Shown here in pieces: positions 789 through 21,302 of a stretch of DNA of 21,500 bases. This DNA is from a virus. The notes below the pieces were generated by a model, which ran no database searches, was not told the origin of the DNA, and was given only the letters and a program-made list of their open reading frames with translations. Position 1 is the stretch's first letter, and each line of letters starts with the position of its first letter. A program made the position numbers and the translations under genes. The DNA lies in the IMG/VR virus record IMGVR_UViG_3300031565_007256, positions 1 to 21,500 of that record. One strand, 5' to 3'.

Positions 789-2723
789 ATGCAGATACGT
801 GAATATATTCAATCAATTTTTCGTGCAATTATCCAGCCCTGGGGAAGGGCCGAAGACACAGAATATACGTGGACGCAAGGCTCGCCCGATGACGTTGAAC
901 AGCGGTATGGACTTACCCCTTTTTATGAGGCGTCGTTGACCCCTTATGTCTTTGCCGCAATGAACATGCGAAAACATGTGGCGTCATTATTTGTGTCGGC
1001 AACGGGATTGAAACCAAATGACACGGGAGCATACTTTCCCCCTCAAATTATTCCCCCCCCATTTTCGCAGACCATAGACCAACAACATCTTGAATTTACA
1101 CAATGGCAATACGATGAGGCGTTGGAACGGGATTTTAGCGAAATTTTGCGAGATGCCTTAGATTCCACATTGACCTATGGGCGGGCAGTTATCGAAAATA
1201 TGTGGACACGAGGGGAAACCCCGTTCTCAAAGACACCCCTTGTGTATGCTACTAACTTTCAGGATAAAGACCCGGAGCGGTTTATCCTGAATCCACAAGA
1301 CAGAGAACCCGGTATCTATGAAAAACAATCATATTTTGATGACTCCAACCTTGAACGGATGCCAGACAGGAAATTTATGGTCATCACCAACCATGGATAT
1401 TTTCAGAATCCCTATGGCATTGCAGAACTGCGGCCACTCTTCGACACACTGAAAGGGATTAAGGAAGGATGGAAAAACTGGAATAGAGGCATTGAAAGGG
1501 CAGGTACAGGGCAATGGATGGGAACGTATCCCAAAACAAAATCAGGGAAAGATACTGACCGAGCACAGTGGCGGGCGAAGTTTTTAGCGGATCTGACCAA
1601 AATGTCATCTGATAAGGTGATCATTAAAGAAGAGGGGGTTTTGATTGAAGCCTTAAAAGCAGAGATAGAAAGTTCCGCGTTTCAATCCAATATTGAATTA
1701 GCCATAAGAATTGTGTCAATTGTGTTATTACACAATCCCACAGCCCTCTTAGATGGACAATACGGGAGCTATGGCGCCGAAGAATCCAAAGGAACACGGG
1801 CAAAATCAGAACTTCAACAGGACGATGCTAATATGCTGTCTAATGCCTGGACATACCAGGCTATCCCCTGGGGGATTGATTATAACTGGTCAGATGTGCA
1901 GGTATATCCCTGGTTGCAAATAATCCAGCCTGAGCGGATTGTCCCGGCAACGCCCAAAGATCAAGAACAAAATATCAATGCACAGCAAGAGGAAGAACCT
2001 GAAAAAGAAAAAAGCGAAGTAGAAGAAGAAAAAGAATTTATTCAGATCTATCAGGACAAAGAAGGCGAAGAGGAAGAGAAACCATCAACGATTAAGAACT
2101 TCCCGGCAAAGGCTCCGGCTCCTGACATCTTTGGAAAAGTTGCAAAGGATGCAAAAAAAGCATTGGATGCAATGCCTGTATATAACAAACAAGATTTTGA
2201 CGGTTTACCTCAAAAAGATAAAGAAAATAGCTTTACAATCTCCTCTCTAGGAAGTACAAAGGGACGTACTGAGCTTATCACACGGTTAAAAAATGAAATT
2301 GCAGACACGTTAAAGCTAACGAATGAGGCGGAAGCCTGGGAAGTATACCGGAAGAAAGCGAGAACAATCTTTGTAGGGGCGTCTATTCCCTTCGAAGAGG
2401 AGAAACTCATCGCTTCGTTTCGGTTTGCACGAAGCAAAGCGTATTCAGACGGTACAATGGAACTCGCGCAACGGGAAAAAGATTCGATTCACGGTCTTAT
2501 CCAAATGACCGCGAATGATTCAGATGTTCGTGCCTCACATAGGGCTTATCATAAGGTCATCCGTCCTATTGATGATCCTATATGGGAGAAGATAAGAGCC
2601 CCTATAGAATTTGACTGTCGTTGTTGGGAAGAAATTATTACCAAAGAAATGTTTGAGGCCGACCCGGTAAGATATGCCTATACTAAAAAACTTCCCGAAA
2701 TAGTACCAAAGAGGTTCAGCTGA
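789..2723 (+). CDS. portal protein fused to Mu-F-like minor head protein (644 aa)
   Basis: Residues 1-390 look like the DUF935/Mu gp29 portal family. There is a conserved middle block around 196-245 (KFMVITNHGYFQNPYG, then LKGIKEGWKNWN and GTYPKT), and near 300-360 the block ELAIRIVSIVLLHNPTAL, then GSYGAEES and a DDAN-containing helix. A very acidic linker follows (about 398-432). Residues 480-625 resemble the Mu gpF/SPP1 gp7 head-morphogenesis domain, ending with the diagnostic TANDSDVRASHRAYHK (574-589), DDPIW (595-599) and FDCRC (608-612). The portal forms the ring at one capsid vertex through which DNA is packaged; MuF-like proteins sit with it inside the procapsid. Separate genes are common, so the fusion is notable. 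AGG (783-785) is only three bases from the ATG, so the start is not firmly fixed. No terminase is in view; it may lie upstream. Confidence 0.85.
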   Translation: MQIREYIQSIFRAIIQPWGRAEDTEYTWTQGSPDDVEQRYGLTPFYEASLTPYVFAAMNMRKHVASLFVSATGLKPNDTGAYFPPQIIPPPFSQTIDQQHLEFTQWQYDEALERDFSEILRDALDSTLTYGRAVIENMWTRGETPFSKTPLVYATNFQDKDPERFILNPQDREPGIYEKQSYFDDSNLERMPDRKFMVITNHGYFQNPYGIAELRPLFDTLKGIKEGWKNWNRGIERAGTGQWMGTYPKTKSGKDTDRAQWRAKFLADLTKMSSDKVIIKEEGVLIEALKAEIESSAFQSNIELAIRIVSIVLLHNPTALLDGQYGSYGAEESKGTRAKSELQQDDANMLSNAWTYQAIPWGIDYNWSDVQVYPWLQIIQPERIVPATPKDQEQNINAQQEEEPEKEKSEVEEEKEFIQIYQDKEGEEEEKPSTIKNFPAKAPAPDIFGKVAKDAKKALDAMPVYNKQDFDGLPQKDKENSFTISSLGSTKGRTELITRLKNEIADTLKLTNEAEAWEVYRKKARTIFVGASIPFEEEKLIASFRFARSKAYSDGTMELAQREKDSIHGLIQMTANDSDVRASHRAYHKVIRPIDDPIWEKIRAPIEFDCRCWEEIITKEMFEADPVRYAYTKKLPEIVPKRFS

Positions 2724-5976: not shown

Positions 5977-7104
5977 ATGAAACGATTAGGAATGGTATTA
6001 CTGGCCTGTGTTCTTGTGTTTATCACAACAGACAATGTGCAAGGGCAGACCACAGAATCGCTGCTTGACTCTGTGATCAATGGCACAGAGTCAGTTCGGT
6101 ATTCGTTGGTTGGCACGACAAGCGGCCTGGACGTGTCAGAAGAAACGGCATTAACAAACACAGTACATCCGTTGGTTGATTTCACACATACAACAAGTGC
6201 GACCCCTGCTAATGGGATCGGGTTATCACTCCGCTGGCTCCAAGAAACGGCGGCTGCGAACACCGAGAACGGGGCGAATATCGCCGTAATTGCCACTGAT
6301 ACAACGGCAGCCTCAGAAGATTTCCAGATGGATTTTATGCTGATGACTGCTGGTGCGGCTCCGGCAACCAAGTGGAGCTTAGGCAGTACTGGTGTTGTTA
6401 CGTTGGTCAACGGAGAAACGATTGACAACTCTGTTAATGGAACCATTACATACACCGCGACAACTCATGCCTTCGCGGGCAATGTGACCTCTTCAGGCTC
6501 TGTGGACATCGTTGGCGCAGGTGGTCTCATCTTAGAAAATGATGAAACAATCACCAATTCGGTCAATGGCGTTATCTCTGTTGATGGTACGCTTGATATT
6601 ACGGCAGCGGGTGGCCTCGTCTTAAGTAATGATGAGACAATCACAAATGCTGTTAACGGTGCGGTCGTAACGGATGGAACATTTCAAGCCCCTGGATTTT
6701 TGACAGTTGATGCGACAGAAGCCAGTGGGGCGCTTGTCTTACAGACAGTCACAGCATCAAGCGGGGCTCTCACGGGGGCGACGGATAAAATTGAGGTAAA
6801 TATCCCGACAGGGTCACTATTACATGCCTGTCAATTACGCGTTGATGTCGCCGTGACGAATGACGGTGATAATACATGGGCTGCGGCATATTCAGGCGGT
6901 TCTAGCGCAGCAATCCAGGGAGCCGGCGGAGCCGCTGCCAAAAACACCAAGGTGAATACGTTTTTTGACGCGAATGCCGCAACGGCTATTACAAGCGGGG
7001 AAACTGACATCACACTAACCCCACAAGGCGCAGACTTTACGGATGGTGAAATTACCGCCGTATGTTATTATTATACATTGACAGCCTTGGATAGTGCTCC
7101 CTAG
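5977..7104 (+). CDS. signal-peptide-bearing beta-repeat protein, probable exported or virion surface protein (375 aa)
   Basis: SD AGGAG (about 5962-5967) precedes the ATG. Residues 1-24 have a typical Sec signal peptide: KR after the start, a hydrophobic core (LGMVLLACVLVFIT) and a small-residue cut region (NVQGQ). LLAC is only marginally lipobox-like, so a lipoprotein is less likely. Residues 139-235 contain three related segments: VNGETIDNSVNG (144-155), ENDETITNSVNG (187-198) and SNDETITNAVNG (217-228); the last two are 30 residues apart. Residues 240-375 form a likely beta sandwich with two cysteines (285, 363). The composition is low in charge and rich in Thr, Ala, Gly, Val, as in fibre-like beta proteins. 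I do not recognise the family. A secreted protein in the middle of a head-tail module is odd. Confidence 0.65.
   Translation: MKRLGMVLLACVLVFITTDNVQGQTTESLLDSVINGTESVRYSLVGTTSGLDVSEETALTNTVHPLVDFTHTTSATPANGIGLSLRWLQETAAANTENGANIAVIATDTTAASEDFQMDFMLMTAGAAPATKWSLGSTGVVTLVNGETIDNSVNGTITYTATTHAFAGNVTSSGSVDIVGAGGLILENDETITNSVNGVISVDGTLDITAAGGLVLSNDETITNAVNGAVVTDGTFQAPGFLTVDATEASGALVLQTVTASSGALTGATDKIEVNIPTGSLLHACQLRVDVAVTNDGDNTWAAAYSGGSSAAIQGAGGAAAKNTKVNTFFDANAATAITSGETDITLTPQGADFTDGEITAVCYYYTLTALDSAP
6523..6684 (+). repeat. tandem 90-bp repeat in the signal-peptide gene
   Basis: Two neighbouring coding units (about 6523-6612 and 6613-6684) each encode GGL-x-L-xNDETIT-N-x-VNG followed by a DG-T block. 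A third, more diverged copy of the VNGETI-like core occurs at about 6406-6441. The protein copies are much alike, while third codon positions differ (for example gaaacaatc and gagacaatc), so duplication is old or selected at the protein level. Confidence 0.6.
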
Positions 7105-14997: not shown

Positions 14998-17580
14998 ATG
15001 GCAACAACAACTGATACAGCAATATTCGAGCTAAAATTTAAGGATGATTCTGGGAAAACCTTTGATGCCTGGGATAAACGTCTCGAAGACCTTGAAGGTA
15101 ACTTTAAAAAGACATTCAAGAACATTGGGAAGACTCTGGGGAATGTTGATTTTTCAGGTTTTGGCGGGGTGTTCGGTGTCGTATCAAAAACAATCACCTC
15201 AACACTTATTCCAGGCATTAATCTTTTAAAGAATGCTTTTTCTGCATTGGTTATTCCTCTAAAAACAACTGCTAATCTCATTAAAGAAGGATTCATTAAG
15301 GGATTAGAAACAATGCAGGATGTACTTGTTTCTAGCGTTAAAAATTTTAGTAAGTTTGAAGATTCCTTCGTTGTTGCACAACGGACAATTGGACGGACTC
15401 GCGAAAGGACAAAGGAATGGTTCGACACGCTTGCTGATGGAATACGGACATTGTCAGCTGTTGAATTGAAAGGTGGGGTTGCAAGTAAGACTTTAGCTGA
15501 CATTGCATCTATTGGCGGGACTTTAGGCATAAAAACAAAAAAAGATTTAGAGGCATTTACCGAAACCATTGCAAAGATGACAGTTGCAACGGATCTAACG
15601 GCGGAAGCTGCCGCTCGCGCACTCCCTAAATTATTAAATGCCTGGGATCTCCCCATTGCAGCAAACATTGAAGGTTTAGGTTCAGTGATAAATCAGCTTG
15701 GGAATGATTTTAATGCAACCCAGTCTGAAATTGTTGATTCTATGCTAAGAATGCAACAAGCATCGTCAGCGTTTAAGCTAACAATAGATCAAGCCGCTGC
15801 ATTATCAGCAACAATGATTGATGCTGGACTGCGCACGCGATTAAGTGCGACTGCGATGTCTAACGTTATGCGTGAGTTAACCGCTGATCATACAAAATTT
15901 GCTGAGGTCTTAAGCATAAACAGTGCTCAACTAAAGCAGGCGATTCTATCAAATGATCCAACTGATGCCCTTCGTCTAGTGTTTGAAGCGTTTCAAAAAA
16001 TTACAACGGCAACACCAGACGGAAAAATTAAAGCATCGCAAGCCTTAAAGGAATTGGGATTTACAGGACAAGGGGTATCTGAAACATTTCTGGCTATGGC
16101 TAAAAATATGGGCACTCTTGATGAGGCGTTGAAAACAGCTTCAGAAGAGATGATAAATCAAGAATCATTAAGCAAAGAATACGACATTGCTATGCAAACA
16201 CTCACAAATGCATGGCAAGCATTTCAAAATATATTAATAGCAATTACAGAGTTTATCGGTAAACCTCTGTCAGAAGCATTAGCAAGACTATTAAATGATA
16301 AAATTACACCTATTTTGATTAAGTTATTTGAATGGATCACAACAAATGAGTCATTAAAAAAAAGTTGGGAGGGATTAATCACAGAGATTGAAACGGAAAT
16401 TGGTGAAATTATTGATAACTTTGAATTATGGAGAAAATCACTGATAGGAAACGAAGATGTATTAAAGTCTATCGAATCAATATGGATCTCATTAGGAAGT
16501 ATCTTTGATAGTATTGTTTTAAAAATAGGTTCATTTGGGGCGGCTATAAGCAGTGCTGGAAAAAAACTATCTCCTATAGAATCAGCGATACTCAGAATAG
16601 ATCAAGCCCTTGCCATGTTTTTATTTAACCTTGAGACACAAGGCCCCTGGGAAGCATTCAAAGAGTTAGCGTTAACAGCATGGGAAGCTATAAAAAATGC
16701 AGCAAAAACAGCATGGGATTTTATTAAAACAGAATTCAACGCTGCCGTTTCTGACGCTGATGAAAATACAAAAAAATGGATAGCTCGATTCAAAAATTTA
16801 CCTCAAACATTTGATGATATGATTGTAGATGTCAAAACATTTATCGCAGTTGTTAAACTATTAGCAGATGAGTGGAGTGGGGTTATTACGGTACTAAGAA
16901 CGGCAGCAAAGATTGTAAAAGAGCTGACATTTGATGCCCGAAGAGACGATCCTGTAATGCAACGATTACAAAATATCGATAAAGAAAATCAAAAGATTAA
17001 ACAATCTACTAAAGAGGTGACTCAGGCTGTTGGCGATATGAAAGATGCATATAACAGCGCGAATGATGACATTACCATTCATTCTGTACTTCCAGATATA
17101 GACACTTGGACAAAAAAAGTAACTCAATCAATAGGCATCATGAATAATGCCGTTGACCAAACGCAACAAGCATATAGTTCTGTTGGACGGACCGCGAGTC
17201 AAATGACAAACGTCAATCTTGAAGGAATTACAAAACGGATAGAAGAAGTTCAGAGCTATTTGCAACACGGCGCGAGTTTTGGAACAGCCCAATCATTAAC
17301 ACAAGCATCACGGGAATTAGCAACACTTGGGGGGAATCAGTTTCAAGCGCAAATAGCAGCTTATCAAGCACAAAAAAAAGTGCAGCCGATACAACCTGCA
17401 TCGGTTAATAGTCAAACAATTACAAGTACCCCATACGTTCAACAGCCGGTCGGTAGCTCAAGAATGCAACCGATGACATTGCAAGCAAATATTTTACTCG
17501 ATGACATGGTCATAGGAAAGGTTGCGCAACGTTTCACGCAGGAGCAAAAAACACAAGCCGGAAGAATTACGATAGGGTAA
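14998..17580 (+). CDS. tape measure protein (860 aa)
   Basis: The ATG follows the previous stop with no gap (TAA ATG) and no clear SD, so it is probably translated by re-initiation. Residues 110-430 carry the TP901-type tape measure core: FEDSFVVAQRTIGRT, then LADIASIGGTLGIKTKKDLE, MTVATDLTAEAAARALPKLL, SQSEIVDSMLRMQQASSAF, IDQAAALSATMIDAGLRTR and ELGFTGQGVSETFLAMAKNM. Hydrophobic stretches precede it (52-95). The rest is long-helical with repeated coiled-coil type patterns to the C-terminus. The protein sets the tail length and leaves with the DNA. By the usual 1.5 angstrom per residue, 860 residues would give a tail of about 130 nm; that is an inference, not a measurement. It is the largest tail gene and fixes the tail module here. 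Confidence 0.9.
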   Translation: MATTTDTAIFELKFKDDSGKTFDAWDKRLEDLEGNFKKTFKNIGKTLGNVDFSGFGGVFGVVSKTITSTLIPGINLLKNAFSALVIPLKTTANLIKEGFIKGLETMQDVLVSSVKNFSKFEDSFVVAQRTIGRTRERTKEWFDTLADGIRTLSAVELKGGVASKTLADIASIGGTLGIKTKKDLEAFTETIAKMTVATDLTAEAAARALPKLLNAWDLPIAANIEGLGSVINQLGNDFNATQSEIVDSMLRMQQASSAFKLTIDQAAALSATMIDAGLRTRLSATAMSNVMRELTADHTKFAEVLSINSAQLKQAILSNDPTDALRLVFEAFQKITTATPDGKIKASQALKELGFTGQGVSETFLAMAKNMGTLDEALKTASEEMINQESLSKEYDIAMQTLTNAWQAFQNILIAITEFIGKPLSEALARLLNDKITPILIKLFEWITTNESLKKSWEGLITEIETEIGEIIDNFELWRKSLIGNEDVLKSIESIWISLGSIFDSIVLKIGSFGAAISSAGKKLSPIESAILRIDQALAMFLFNLETQGPWEAFKELALTAWEAIKNAAKTAWDFIKTEFNAAVSDADENTKKWIARFKNLPQTFDDMIVDVKTFIAVVKLLADEWSGVITVLRTAAKIVKELTFDARRDDPVMQRLQNIDKENQKIKQSTKEVTQAVGDMKDAYNSANDDITIHSVLPDIDTWTKKVTQSIGIMNNAVDQTQQAYSSVGRTASQMTNVNLEGITKRIEEVQSYLQHGASFGTAQSLTQASRELATLGGNQFQAQIAAYQAQKKVQPIQPASVNSQTITSTPYVQQPVGSSRMQPMTLQANILLDDMVIGKVAQRFTQEQKTQAGRITIG

Positions 17581-17586
17581 ACTATT

Positions 17587-18663
17587 ATGTCATTTGGGCC
17601 AACGAGATTTTTATATAACAACTTTTTGACATCGCCAGAAATGATTACCGCTGATTCTCAAGCTTCTGGTGTTGTCGGAGGTGCGGAAAAAATACAAGGT
17701 ACTTCTGGGGTAGCAATAATGGTATCATACGGATCATATTCTGGCACGTCAGGGTTAAGATACACGGTACAGATTGTTTCTCCTGGTGACGTTGGCGTCG
17801 CAACCTTCAGGTGGAAGACCTCAGAAACACCGTCGGGCACATGGGAAGCAACAGGAATTACGACACTATCGACACCAACTCTGCTGAATTATAATACCTA
17901 TATATTTTGGGTAGGAGGCACTGGCGTAGATTTTGAGCAAAATGATACATGGATACTTGAGACACAAGCAACGTATTCAACAGAAAATCTTTTTGATAAA
18001 GATCGAAATACGATTTTTCGTTCGGGCTCAACGTTTAATATTGAATTTAATCTTGGTTCTGCTCGACATATAACAGCAATCATCCTATATGGTCATAATC
18101 TAACATCAGCAACATCAACAGCGATCCTGCAAATGAACACAACAAGCTCATGGGCCTCCCCTCCATATACTCAATCTTTAACTATAGCAAACCCTATCAT
18201 TATCTATGTCGATGAAAACTATCAATATCAAAGAATATCAATAACAGACACAGAACTGAGCTATGTTGAATTTTCTCAAATTTATATTGGAGATTATCTT
18301 GAATTGAGCCACAACGCTAAATGGGATACCCCCCTAACGCCTGGCTTAAATATCATTGAAAGCGGTGACGTTACTGGAATAAATCGCAGAAAAATCTATA
18401 CTAAGCAAGATCGAATACAACTTGATTATCAGATTCTTAAATACGCAGATATTGACAACCTTATCACAATGCAAAAATCATTATACCATACTGATACAGG
18501 TATAATCGACAGACTTTTCCTACATTTATTTTCTGACGATGCCACAAAATATATATGGCTCATGGATTGGACAAATATTAATGCGATAGATTATATCTTT
18601 AAATATGTGACACATGGATCAATAATGTTAGAATTTTCAGAACAAGTAAATACTAGGCGATAA
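17587..18663 (+). CDS. distal tail-like protein with discoidin-type domain (358 aa)
   Basis: AGGG (about 17573-17576) precedes the ATG by 10 bases, overlapping the tape measure stop. Residues 1-128 form a beta-rich domain (VATFRWKTSETPSGTWEA, then FWVGGTGVDFEQNDTWILET). Residues 134-235 read NLFDKDRNTIFRSGSTFNIEFNLGS (134-158) and ITAIILYGHNLTS, the shape of an F5/8 type C (discoidin) jelly roll: NLxDxxxxTxxxs, xxxxxxxLGs, xxxxxxxxxGhN. Residues 236-358 look like a second structural block, with ISGD-, RRKIYTKQDRIQLDY and LFLHLFSDDATKY. Discoidin folds often bind sugars or proteins. The position just after the tape measure suggests a distal tail protein (Dit-like) adaptor for the tip. The Dit role is from position only. 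Confidence 0.55.
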   Translation: MSFGPTRFLYNNFLTSPEMITADSQASGVVGGAEKIQGTSGVAIMVSYGSYSGTSGLRYTVQIVSPGDVGVATFRWKTSETPSGTWEATGITTLSTPTLLNYNTYIFWVGGTGVDFEQNDTWILETQATYSTENLFDKDRNTIFRSGSTFNIEFNLGSARHITAIILYGHNLTSATSTAILQMNTTSSWASPPYTQSLTIANPIIIYVDENYQYQRISITDTELSYVEFSQIYIGDYLELSHNAKWDTPLTPGLNIIESGDVTGINRRKIYTKQDRIQLDYQILKYADIDNLITMQKSLYHTDTGIIDRLFLHLFSDDATKYIWLMDWTNINAIDYIFKYVTHGSIMLEFSEQVNTRR

Positions 18664-18666
18664 CCT

Positions 18667-20088
18667 ATGTTTCATACGACCAACGCATATAACATAGCAA
18701 AAAATTCAGGTAAAAAACCTGTATTATTAGCGTACTTGACCGGGAAAAAAGCTCGACGTGTGTTTGGAAAGTTAACTCCGACAGAGTCTGAAACTGGCAC
18801 GAATACAATTACACTCTGGGACGGGACGACAGTAACAGGAGACGGAGGGTATTTTGATGGAGGGGGGTCTCCAATATTTGCAAGAGAGGCCAGAGTCGTA
18901 AGCTTTGGGAGCATAGAAAAAACACTAACGCCGGAGAGAGGCAATTTAATCGCGAGCCTCAACAAATCCGAACTCAGTGCTTTCAGCGTTACTCTGGATA
19001 ATACTGACGATTATTTCTCAGAAATTTTAGGAGATGATCGAAACGAGAGTTTTTTGACTCAAGAGCTTAGCATTGGTCAGGCATTTTTAGGATTACACGC
19101 AAAAGACTTTCAAACTCTTACATCAGGGAGTGTTGTCGAATTACGTTTAACGGAAAAAACGCTAACGCTTATGTGTGAGCCAACAATACTAAGTAGCAAT
19201 ACTGTTGTCGTGTCGAAAGAAGAAGTGTCAATTATCGACGGTGTTGAATTTGAGTTGAAATGGGGGTCAAAAGGTTCCGGAGATGGTCAGTTTGACGACC
19301 TTAGAGGTATATACCTGGATTCAGATGATAATGTATTTATTGTTGATTCTAAAAATCATCGGATTCAAAAGTTTGACAAAAACGGATCATATATTAGCAA
19401 ATTCGGAACATTTGGAACTGGAAACAAGGAATTTAATATTCCCTACGATATTGTTATCGACAAATCAGATAATATCTATGTAACCGACTCATTAAATAAT
19501 AGAGTTCAAAAATTTGATTCAAATTTCTCATATATAAGTCAATTCGGCTCATACGGTACGCTTGAAGGACGTTTTCAAGAGCCACGGGGAATAGCTCTTG
19601 ACTCTTCTGGAAATATTTTTGTAGTTGATAGACTCAATTACAGAGTACAGAAATTTGACTCAAGCGGAGCATATATAAGTTCATTCGGAACATTTGGAAC
19701 TGGTGACGGACAGTTTAAACATTCGTATTATATATGCGTAGACACCTCAGACAATGTGTTTGTTGGTGATGCCAGTCAAAACCAACGAGTCCAAGCGTTT
19801 ACTAACGATGGAATATTTTTATATAAGTTCGGAGATTCTTCTTTTATGATTCCAAGAGGACTGAGGTTAGGGCCATTAGGTTATCTATTCGTCGTTTCAT
19901 CGTTCCCTTTTAACAATGTCCAGTTTTTTAGCGGAACTACCATCAAAGGAACATTTGGTTCAACAGGTTCTGGAGATGATGAGTTTTCTAATCCACGAGG
20001 TATAGCTTTTAATAGCACATTTACATCTCTCTATATTACTGATACTTTTTATAATCGCGTTAAGAAGTTTAAGGTGAATATTACATGA
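18667..20088 (+). CDS. tail-tip hub protein with six-bladed NHL beta-propeller (473 aa)
   Basis: The start is 3 bases after the previous stop. Residues 1-190 are a tail-tip domain of the hub type: RVVSFGSIEKTLTPERG (77-91), then SAFSVTLDNTDDYFSEI (104-120) and ELRLTEKTLTLMCEP (158-172). Residues 195-470 are NHL repeats: FDDLRGIYLDSDDNVFIVDS, FNIPYDIVIDKSDNIYVTDS, FQEPRGIALDSSGNIFVVDR, FKHSYYICVDTSDNVFVGDA, a degenerate fifth (MIPRGLRLGPLGYLFVV) and FSNPRGIAFNSTFTSLYITDT. Each is followed by a VQKFD-type strand in most copies, about 47 residues per blade. The first strand (EFELKWG) would close the ring with the last. NHL propellers mainly bind proteins, RNA or sugars; here host surface binding is inferred. 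Such a propeller in the tail tip is unusual. Confidence 0.75.
   Translation: MFHTTNAYNIAKNSGKKPVLLAYLTGKKARRVFGKLTPTESETGTNTITLWDGTTVTGDGGYFDGGGSPIFAREARVVSFGSIEKTLTPERGNLIASLNKSELSAFSVTLDNTDDYFSEILGDDRNESFLTQELSIGQAFLGLHAKDFQTLTSGSVVELRLTEKTLTLMCEPTILSSNTVVVSKEEVSIIDGVEFELKWGSKGSGDGQFDDLRGIYLDSDDNVFIVDSKNHRIQKFDKNGSYISKFGTFGTGNKEFNIPYDIVIDKSDNIYVTDSLNNRVQKFDSNFSYISQFGSYGTLEGRFQEPRGIALDSSGNIFVVDRLNYRVQKFDSSGAYISSFGTFGTGDGQFKHSYYICVDTSDNVFVGDASQNQRVQAFTNDGIFLYKFGDSSFMIPRGLRLGPLGYLFVVSSFPFNNVQFFSGTTIKGTFGSTGSGDDEFSNPRGIAFNSTFTSLYITDTFYNRVKKFKVNIT
19249..20076 (+). repeat. six NHL repeat units (about 141 bp period)
   Basis: Blades begin near residues 195, 247, 294, 341, 388 and 430. Blades 1-4 share the phrase GSxGTGDGQF or a relative, a PRGIxLDSSxNIFVVD-like strand and an RVQKFD strand. 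Blades 5 and 6 are more degenerate, and blade 5 is shorter. Third-position differences between the copies point to an old duplication. Confidence 0.7.
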
Positions 20089-21302
20089 GTATCATAGACA
20101 CATTCATATTGCCACGATCCGGAAGATACGCGAATCCAACAAATCAAAATGATATACTTCCGATCCTTTATGGGGATTTAACCGAAAACTCTGCTACTGG
20201 TATATTTATACCACCCTGTATTGACACTATAAATCAATATTATTGTCTTTGTGCCTCGGAGATATTGTCAGAAAATAATGGTAATGTTGTTAAAGTATAT
20301 AATAATGATGTCTTGTTGACATCAGGGTATACTGTCATTACCGATGGAGATCTCGAAAATCAAGGTAGGATTGCTTATCTTGCGTTTGATGAAATCCAAT
20401 CTGGAACAATAACAGTCTCATGCTCAGGCCGAGCTTCCGCCGGCATACTTATCACAAATCCAATAGACATTGCAGAAGATTTATTATCTTTAGCAGGTGA
20501 TTCGACATCATACAATATACACTCATTTTCTCAAGCAAAATACTCAGCATCTTTTTATAACTATGTTGCTGCTGGTATTATTAATTCAGATAATAGTTTA
20601 TTTTTCTGGATTGTTAATATTTTGTCATCATTTTTAGGCGAGGCATTCTTCAATAATCGCGGAGAATTGGTCTTAATGATTGACACTCCATTATCATCTA
20701 CTATACAAATATCGGGAAATATAAGAGAACGTAATTGCAGCGGTTGGTCAGGAGTTCAAAGTATTAAAAACCTCATTAATATCGTCCCTGTAAATTATGC
20801 TAAGTCCTATACTAAGATCGATCTGAGATACACGGAAGATGTCAAAAATGAATATCTTAAGGAAGACAATGGAGAATCAACACAAGATGCTTTTTCTGTA
20901 AAAAAATTTGGAGTTTTTTATCCAAAGACAGCTTTTACGTTTGATTGGTGCCGAAAGACTGAAAATGTAAGAAAGATACAAGCAAGAACAATTGAAAAAC
21001 ATTCAAAGCCAATCTGGTTCCCAATCTCGACGCAAGAACTTGGGTTTGAAAACATCCACGTCGAAGAAGGCGATTTTGTGACTTATAGTTGGGAAGGTCG
21101 AAGAGATGAAAACGGGTATCCATTGAGAAACCAGATCGCCGAAGTACTAACCAAACGCATTGATGGAGACTTTGAAAATATACAATGGGAATTACGAGAC
21201 ACTGGAACATATCTTTCAGAACCTCCTGATATATGGGATGGAAGTACATATACAGGAGATGGAGGAATATTTGGCGGGAAACGTGATAGGAGAATTCTAT
21301 AA
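20085..21302 (+). CDS. tail-tip/baseplate hub protein (405 aa)
   Basis: It begins in an ATGA overlap with the NHL gene, so it is made with it. The N-terminus reads PRSGRYANPTNQNDILPILYGDL, then IPPCIDTINQYYCLCASEI (about 41-61) and VVKVYNNDVLLTSGY. In the middle are GILITNPIDIAEDLLSLAGD and FYNYVAAGIINSDNSLFFWI, then AFFNNRGELVLMIDT (187-201). This order (YGD, a proline-led entry, a ID-x-x-x-x-Y block, nP.DI.xDLL, then xxNxxGELVL) matches a family of phage tail-tip hub proteins that I know mainly from uncultured phages. The C-terminal DIWDGSTYTGDGGIFGG repeats a motif found near the N-terminus of the NHL protein (18817-18864). No enzymatic motif was seen. It would be part of the tip ring around the tape measure's end. 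Confidence 0.6.
   Translation: MSIIDTFILPRSGRYANPTNQNDILPILYGDLTENSATGIFIPPCIDTINQYYCLCASEILSENNGNVVKVYNNDVLLTSGYTVITDGDLENQGRIAYLAFDEIQSGTITVSCSGRASAGILITNPIDIAEDLLSLAGDSTSYNIHSFSQAKYSASFYNYVAAGIINSDNSLFFWIVNILSSFLGEAFFNNRGELVLMIDTPLSSTIQISGNIRERNCSGWSGVQSIKNLINIVPVNYAKSYTKIDLRYTEDVKNEYLKEDNGESTQDAFSVKKFGVFYPKTAFTFDWCRKTENVRKIQARTIEKHSKPIWFPISTQELGFENIHVEEGDFVTYSWEGRRDENGYPLRNQIAEVLTKRIDGDFENIQWELRDTGTYLSEPPDIWDGSTYTGDGGIFGGKRDRRIL

What the first reader, a model, noticed from the sequence alone, without database searches (positions are those of the whole stretch)
18667..20088. NHL beta-propeller built into a tail-tip hub protein
Residues 195-470 of the tail hub carry six NHL-type repeats (period about 47 residues) closed by an N-terminal strand, while residues 1-190 are tail-tip type. 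NHL propellers are well known in TRIM proteins and in PknD-type kinase sensors, mainly as protein or RNA binders. A tail tip with a single propeller per subunit would give a ring of propellers on the distal tail, a plausible receptor-binding or symmetry-adaptor device.
Basis: partly seen in the sequence, partly recalled or inferred. Interest (0 to 1): 0.65.

Follow-up and report, generated by a model that had tools for sequence, protein, structure and literature searches.

The report
NHL propeller on phage tail-tip protein
A gene in the tail-tip block of an uncultured phage encodes a protein ending in a six-bladed NHL propeller, a fold best known from animal TRIM proteins; it probably serves as an extra gripping module on the tail tip, and similar grafts occur in tail proteins of several other phages.

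Summary
ORF 18667-20088 (473 aa) carries six NHL repeats in residues 200-473 (Pfam NHL E=3.8e-26). AlphaFold folds residues 207-473 as a six-bladed propeller from one sequence, and Foldseek matches it to the NHL domains of Thin and TRIM71 (E down to 5.7e-26, TM to target 0.85-0.89). The gene lies two genes after the tape-measure gene and overlaps the next gene (405 aa). Base composition gives no sign of a chimera.

The 'tail hub' half is only partly supported. Residues 1-193 have no detectable relative and no confident fold. Support is gene position plus one motif, FSVTLDNTDDYFS. In IMG/VR a degenerate form of it marks ORFs next to tape-measure genes (five of seven tested) or in minor-tail families, but masking the motif removes the similarity.

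NHL modules also sit in unrelated phage tail proteins: a lambda-J-like hub, a probable distal tail protein whose neighbouring paralogue lacks it, a DUF2460 protein, and fibres. NHL repeats in NrS-2 and NrS-3 tail fibres are published. Best reading: an adhesion module like those of 'evolved' Dit and Tal proteins, with NHL in place of a carbohydrate-binding module. New variant of a known kind; binding is untested.

The parts
18667..20088 (+). 473-aa protein: N-terminal tail-tip-like domain plus NHL propeller
   Evidence: ORF; Pfam NHL; AF2 and Foldseek
18667..19245 (+). N-terminal domain, residues 1-193, proposed hub domain I
   Evidence: No database relative or confident fold; motif and gene position only
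18982..19020 (+). Motif FSVTLDNTDDYFS, residues 106-118
   Evidence: Degenerate motif marks hub-position ORFs in IMG/VR
19243..19263 (+). VEFELKW, residues 193-199, inferred closing strand of blade 6
   Evidence: Repeat register; model confidence low here
19264..19404 (+). NHL repeat 1
19405..19545 (+). NHL repeat 2
19546..19686 (+). NHL repeat 3
19687..19830 (+). NHL repeat 4
19831..19956 (+). NHL repeat 5 (divergent, 42 residues)
19957..20085 (+). NHL repeat 6 (three strands)
20085..21302 (+). 405-aa protein, overlaps the NHL gene by 4 bases (ATGA); candidate remainder of the hub
   Evidence: Position; no family or relative found; hub identity is inference
17587..18663 (+). 358-aa protein between tape measure and NHL gene, candidate distal tail protein
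   Evidence: phrog_8610 (unknown function) E=8.6e-9; position
14998..17580 (+). Tape-measure protein
   Evidence: phrog_28 E=1.5e-43; TIGR01760 E=1.1e-34

Best explanation
The protein is a tail-tip component, probably the part of the hub that carries hub domain I, as gpL does in lambda and gp13 in RcGTA, where domain I is on a different gene from the rest of the hub. Its C-terminus is a complete six-bladed NHL propeller. In the virion it would be present in about three copies, with the N-terminal domain in the tip and the propeller on the outside, where it binds a host surface protein or glycan and helps attachment alongside other receptor-binding proteins. Shown: the propeller fold, its fusion in one ORF, and the place in the tail-tip gene block. 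Suggested by motif and position: hub domain I. Inferred from parallels: outward display, copy number and binding.
For: Propeller. Place two genes after the tape measure. Motif TLDNTDGxF[ST] in IMG/VR lies in ORFs next to tape-measure genes in five of seven loci tested, and in minor tail families in the other two. [quoted passage not shown] Binding modules grafted onto Dit and Tal are documented, and evolved Dits bind host cells (PMC7291167). NHL modules occur in five other tail-block proteins with different scaffolds, two of them beside paralogues without the propeller. NrS-2 and NrS-3 tail fibres carry NHL repeats and differ in their number (PMC9723563).
Against: With the motif masked the N-terminus is no more hub-like than shuffled sequence, and motif-keeping shuffles score as well. 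hhalign aligns only the motif, probability 15% or less. AF2 of the N-terminus failed. The 405-aa gene is not recognisable as hub. No host, ligand or virion data.
Confidence: 0.5

Rival explanations
1. The propeller is a structural platform that anchors or spaces another fibre or receptor-binding protein, rather than contacting the host itself.
For: NHL domains are general protein binders (general knowledge), and the record ends just after the next gene begins, so a downstream fibre could exist.
Against: In the other tail proteins with NHL the scaffolds differ, which suits a self-contained binding module better than one fixed partner.
Confidence: 0.2
2. The N-terminus is not hub domain I; the protein is a separate minor tail or side-fibre protein with an NHL head.
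For: No detectable similarity of the N-terminus to hub profiles beyond the motif. NrS-2, NrS-3 and L014 NHL proteins are annotated as, or look like, fibres.
Against: The gene lies close behind the tape measure and overlaps the next gene, and the motif is found in hub-position ORFs.
Confidence: 0.2
3. The propeller is an enzyme, for example a lyase or lactonase acting on host surface material.
For: Weak matches to SMP-30/gluconolactonase and Vgb lyase profiles.
Against: NHL repeats score far higher and the closest structures are the non-enzymatic NHL domains of Thin and TRIM proteins.
Confidence: 0.06
4. Assembly chimera joining a phage gene to a host NHL gene.
For: No independent copy of this exact gene was found.
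Against: Open frame throughout and a 4-base overlap with the next gene. GC and third-position GC of the NHL part (0.354, 0.271) match the downstream gene (0.362, 0.269), and codon usage is not an outlier. Comparable fusions occur in other contigs.
Confidence: 0.02

Closest known systems
Evolved Dit and evolved Tal proteins of siphophages (PMC7291167)
   Same: Accessory, probably binding, domain grafted onto a tail-tip scaffold protein encoded just after the tape measure.
   Different: Known grafts are carbohydrate-binding modules; here the graft is an NHL propeller at the C-terminus, and the scaffold is not proven to be a hub.
Nitratiruptor phage NrS-2 and NrS-3 tail fibre proteins (PMC9723563; locus L002)
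   Same: NHL repeats in a tail protein encoded two genes after the tape measure.
   Different: Sequences are weakly related (29% identity over 38% of the query); the N-terminus there is fibre-like; three of six repeats are missing in NrS-3.
lambda gpL and gpJ, RcGTA gp13 and gp15 (PMC10721106)
   Same: Hub domain I on a separate gene before the rest of the hub, by position and one motif.
   Different: gpL and gp13 carry an iron-sulfur cluster; the window protein has two cysteines in all and an NHL propeller instead. No significant sequence similarity.
NHL domains of Thin and TRIM71
   Same: Same six-bladed fold and repeat; 36% (Thin) and 28-30% (TRIM71) identity in the structural alignment.
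   Different: Those are animal TRIM-family proteins, some binding RNA; this domain is acidic (pI 5.5) and in a phage tail gene.

Membership tests
NHL repeat propeller (PF01436) | NHL repeats above the family cut-off | tested here: met
   90.2 bits against a cut-off of 20, E=3.8e-26
NHL repeat propeller (PF01436) | Six-bladed propeller fold like known NHL domains | tested here: met
   AF2 model and Foldseek, TM to target 0.85-0.89; the closing strand itself is low confidence
Tail hub protein, domain I (gpL/gp13 type) | Place in the tail-tip gene block behind the tape measure | tested here: met
Tail hub protein, domain I (gpL/gp13 type) | Sequence similarity to hub proteins | tested here: inconclusive
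   One motif shared with hub-position ORFs; nothing beyond it
Tail hub protein, domain I (gpL/gp13 type) | Hub domain I fold | tested here: inconclusive
   AF2 failed for residues 1-206, pLDDT 32
Tail hub protein, domain I (gpL/gp13 type) | Iron-sulfur domain of gpL and gp13 (four cysteines) | tested here: not met
   Two cysteines in the whole protein; so it is not filed as a gpL or gp13 member, only as working like one
Evolved Dit or Tal | Accessory domain on a Dit or Tal scaffold | tested here: inconclusive
   Accessory domain shown; scaffold identity not shown
Evolved Dit or Tal | Accessory domain binds the host surface | not testable with these tools
   Needs binding or adsorption experiments

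The most novel reading that the evidence does not exclude
NHL propellers are a recurrent, independently acquired class of phage tail-tip adhesion module, grafted onto hub, distal tail, minor tail and fibre scaffolds in unrelated phages; the window shows one that takes the place of the C-terminal domain of a split hub protein.
Probability: 0.4. Interest if true: 0.6.

Novelty: new variant of a known kind. Interest (0 to 1): 0.45.

Why it matters
Phages change host by swapping binding modules on their tail tips. The documented modules on Dit and Tal proteins are mostly carbohydrate-binding folds. A propeller of six similar blades would be a different kind of binding platform, and the loss of blades between NrS-2 and NrS-3 suggests it can be varied. 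If the pattern holds, NHL hits in phage tail genes become a way to find unannotated receptor-binding proteins, and paralogues with and without the propeller (as in L008) allow a direct test of its role.

Tried and rejected
Close relatives of the protein, its N-terminus and both neighbours were sought in IMG/VR and INPHARED, and the 405-aa neighbour also in GTDB genomes; only weak NHL-region matches were found.

An alignment with invented motif variants (A3) was used only to widen a search pattern; it matched 25 stretches, none confirmed.

A motif shared by the two tail genes (WDG..TGDGG, BLAST E=3e-5 between them) gave one match in GTDB genomes, judged chance from its ORFs.

A second AF2 job with an eight-sequence alignment of the N-terminus failed (pLDDT 32).

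Direct DNA repeats of 18 bases or more in the NHL part, as a sign of recent blade duplication, were not found.

Human-gut 'Bacteriophage sp.' records with weak NHL hits are unverified scaffolds and were not used. RNA binding was set aside because the domain is acidic. NHL loci without a tail context in what was read (L006, L007, L011, L012, L021, L022) were not counted.

Full report
OBSERVATION. The ORF at 18667-20088 encodes 473 residues. Residues 200-473 hold six repeats of 47, 47, 47, 48, 42 and 43 residues. Pfam NHL scores 90.2 bits against a cut-off of 20, E=3.8e-26. phmmer finds the NHL domains of Thin (E=1.3e-59) and TRIM71 (E=2.8e-56) in the PDB. AlphaFold2, from the single sequence, gives five four-stranded blades and a sixth with three strands, at pLDDT mostly 70-90 from residue 211 on. 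Foldseek places it on the Thin and TRIM71 NHL domains with TM to target 0.85-0.89. Closure by the strand VEFELKW fits the repeat register, but that strand lies in a low-confidence part.

NOT A CHIMERA. The gene is open throughout and overlaps the next start codon by four bases. GC content of the NHL part (0.354; third positions 0.271) equals that of the downstream gene (0.362; 0.269), and codon usage is unremarkable.

SURROUNDINGS. The window is a 21.5-kb viral record. Upstream are a Mu-type portal and a tape-measure gene at 14998-17580 (phrog_28 E=1.5e-43). Between the tape measure and the NHL gene is one 358-aa gene (phrog_8610, unknown function). The 405-aa gene follows at 20085-21302. In siphophages the tape-measure, Dit and Tal (hub) genes form a neighbouring triad (PMC7291167).

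THE N-TERMINUS. Residues 1-190 match nothing in PHROGs, NCBIfam, INPHARED or IMG/VR, and only a chance-level hit in the PDB. They do contain FSVTLDNTDDYFS. A degenerate DNA pattern for TLDNTDGxF[ST] run over IMG/VR gave 14 loci. In 13 the motif lies in a plausible tail-like ORF; L025 is the exception. Nine of these ORFs were run against PHROGs: six match phrog_5313 and one phrog_13879 (both of unknown function), and two match minor tail families phrog_18 and phrog_4199, which I take to be the gpL type. Upstream ORFs were tested for seven loci: in L027, L029, L032, L034 and L037 the upstream gene is a tape measure; in the two minor-tail loci it was unassigned. So the motif marks proteins in hub position. 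A control limits this. With the motif masked, 60 of 200 shuffles score as well as the real N-terminus, and when the motif is kept and the rest shuffled, 79 of 200 do. hhalign against three hub-like alignments aligns only the motif, with probability of 15% or less. A second AF2 job with an eight-sequence alignment failed. Hub domain I is a reasoned proposal, not a finding.

A USEFUL PRECEDENT. In lambda, hub domain I is on gpL and the other hub domains on gpJ; in RcGTA they are on gp13 and gp15. [quoted passage not shown] If the 473- and 405-aa proteins correspond to gpL and gpJ, the propeller takes the place of that outer domain. The window protein has two cysteines in all, so it lacks a four-cysteine site and is not filed as a gpL member. 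The 405-aa protein could not be recognised as a hub, so this correspondence is inference.

NHL PROPELLERS IN OTHER TAIL PROTEINS. A scan of IMG/VR with an NHL alignment gave 19 loci on 17 contigs. Five distinct cases lie in tail gene blocks. L020 is a 1389-aa lambda-J-like hub (phrog_31 E=1.4e-85, PF13550) whose propeller, about residues 932-1215, appears to interrupt an FN3-like domain. L008 has, next to a probable tape-measure gene (weak match, E=4.2e-5), a 441-aa protein whose first 136 residues are 58% identical to the next gene, which has no propeller. L015 and L016 carry NHL plus DUF2460; in L015 this lies directly after a clear tape-measure gene, and a propeller-less paralogue of the C-terminal part follows (32% identity). 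L010 has an NHL protein directly after a tape-measure gene and before a tail protein of phrog_1887. L014 has two NHL proteins downstream of tape-measure and baseplate wedge genes. In annotated phages NHL is rare: seven of 50,697 INPHARED records at E<=1e-5, four of them from human-gut scaffolds; the ones opened are unverified. NHL repeats in the NrS-2 and NrS-3 tail fibres, with three of six repeats missing in NrS-3, are published (PMC9723563). The IMG/VR scan was pattern-based and its hits are not a rate.

MECHANISM. Accessory binding modules grafted onto Dit and Tal are documented, and those of evolved Dits bind host cells (PMC7291167). The simplest reading is that the NHL propeller is such a module: a tail-tip scaffold protein holds it, and its exposed face binds a host surface protein or glycan. 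Three copies are expected if the protein is gpL-like. The acidic character (pI 5.5) makes nucleic-acid binding unlikely. Binding, orientation and copy number are inferred; no ligand or host is known.

VERDICT. The propeller is real and sits in a tail-tip gene. The hub claim is plausible but unproven, and 'symmetry adaptor' has no support. A binding module on a tail-tip protein is a known idea; an NHL propeller in that role has a published fibre example and appears here in several further scaffolds. It is a new variant of a known kind.

Noticed in passing
window 789-2723: One ORF matches both the Mu portal family (residues 109-396) and Mu F (residues 536-612), a portal and head-morphogenesis fusion.
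   Followed up: no
window 18814-18861 and 21231-21278: The NHL gene and the next gene share the motif WDG[TS]T.TGDGG.F.G (BLAST E=3e-5 between the two proteins); its role is unknown and one genome-wide match was judged chance.
   Followed up: partly
window 5977-7104: A 375-aa ORF that begins with a signal-peptide-like stretch, lying among the structural genes.
   Followed up: no
L020 2154-6323: A lambda-J-like hub protein in which an NHL propeller appears to interrupt an FN3-like domain; a clearer hub-NHL fusion than the one in the window.
   Followed up: partly
L008 4479-6242: Neighbouring paralogues, 58% identical over 138 residues, one with and one without an NHL propeller.
   Followed up: partly
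L027, L028, L029, L035, L038: Hub-position ORFs of phrog_5313 type that look as if they carry extra lectin-like (LamG-like) stretches after the motif domain, absent in the shorter L034; judged by eye, no domain search was run for these stretches.
   Followed up: no
L013 4153-5840: Two neighbouring, very similar NHL genes on the same contig as the NHL gene of L018.
   Followed up: no
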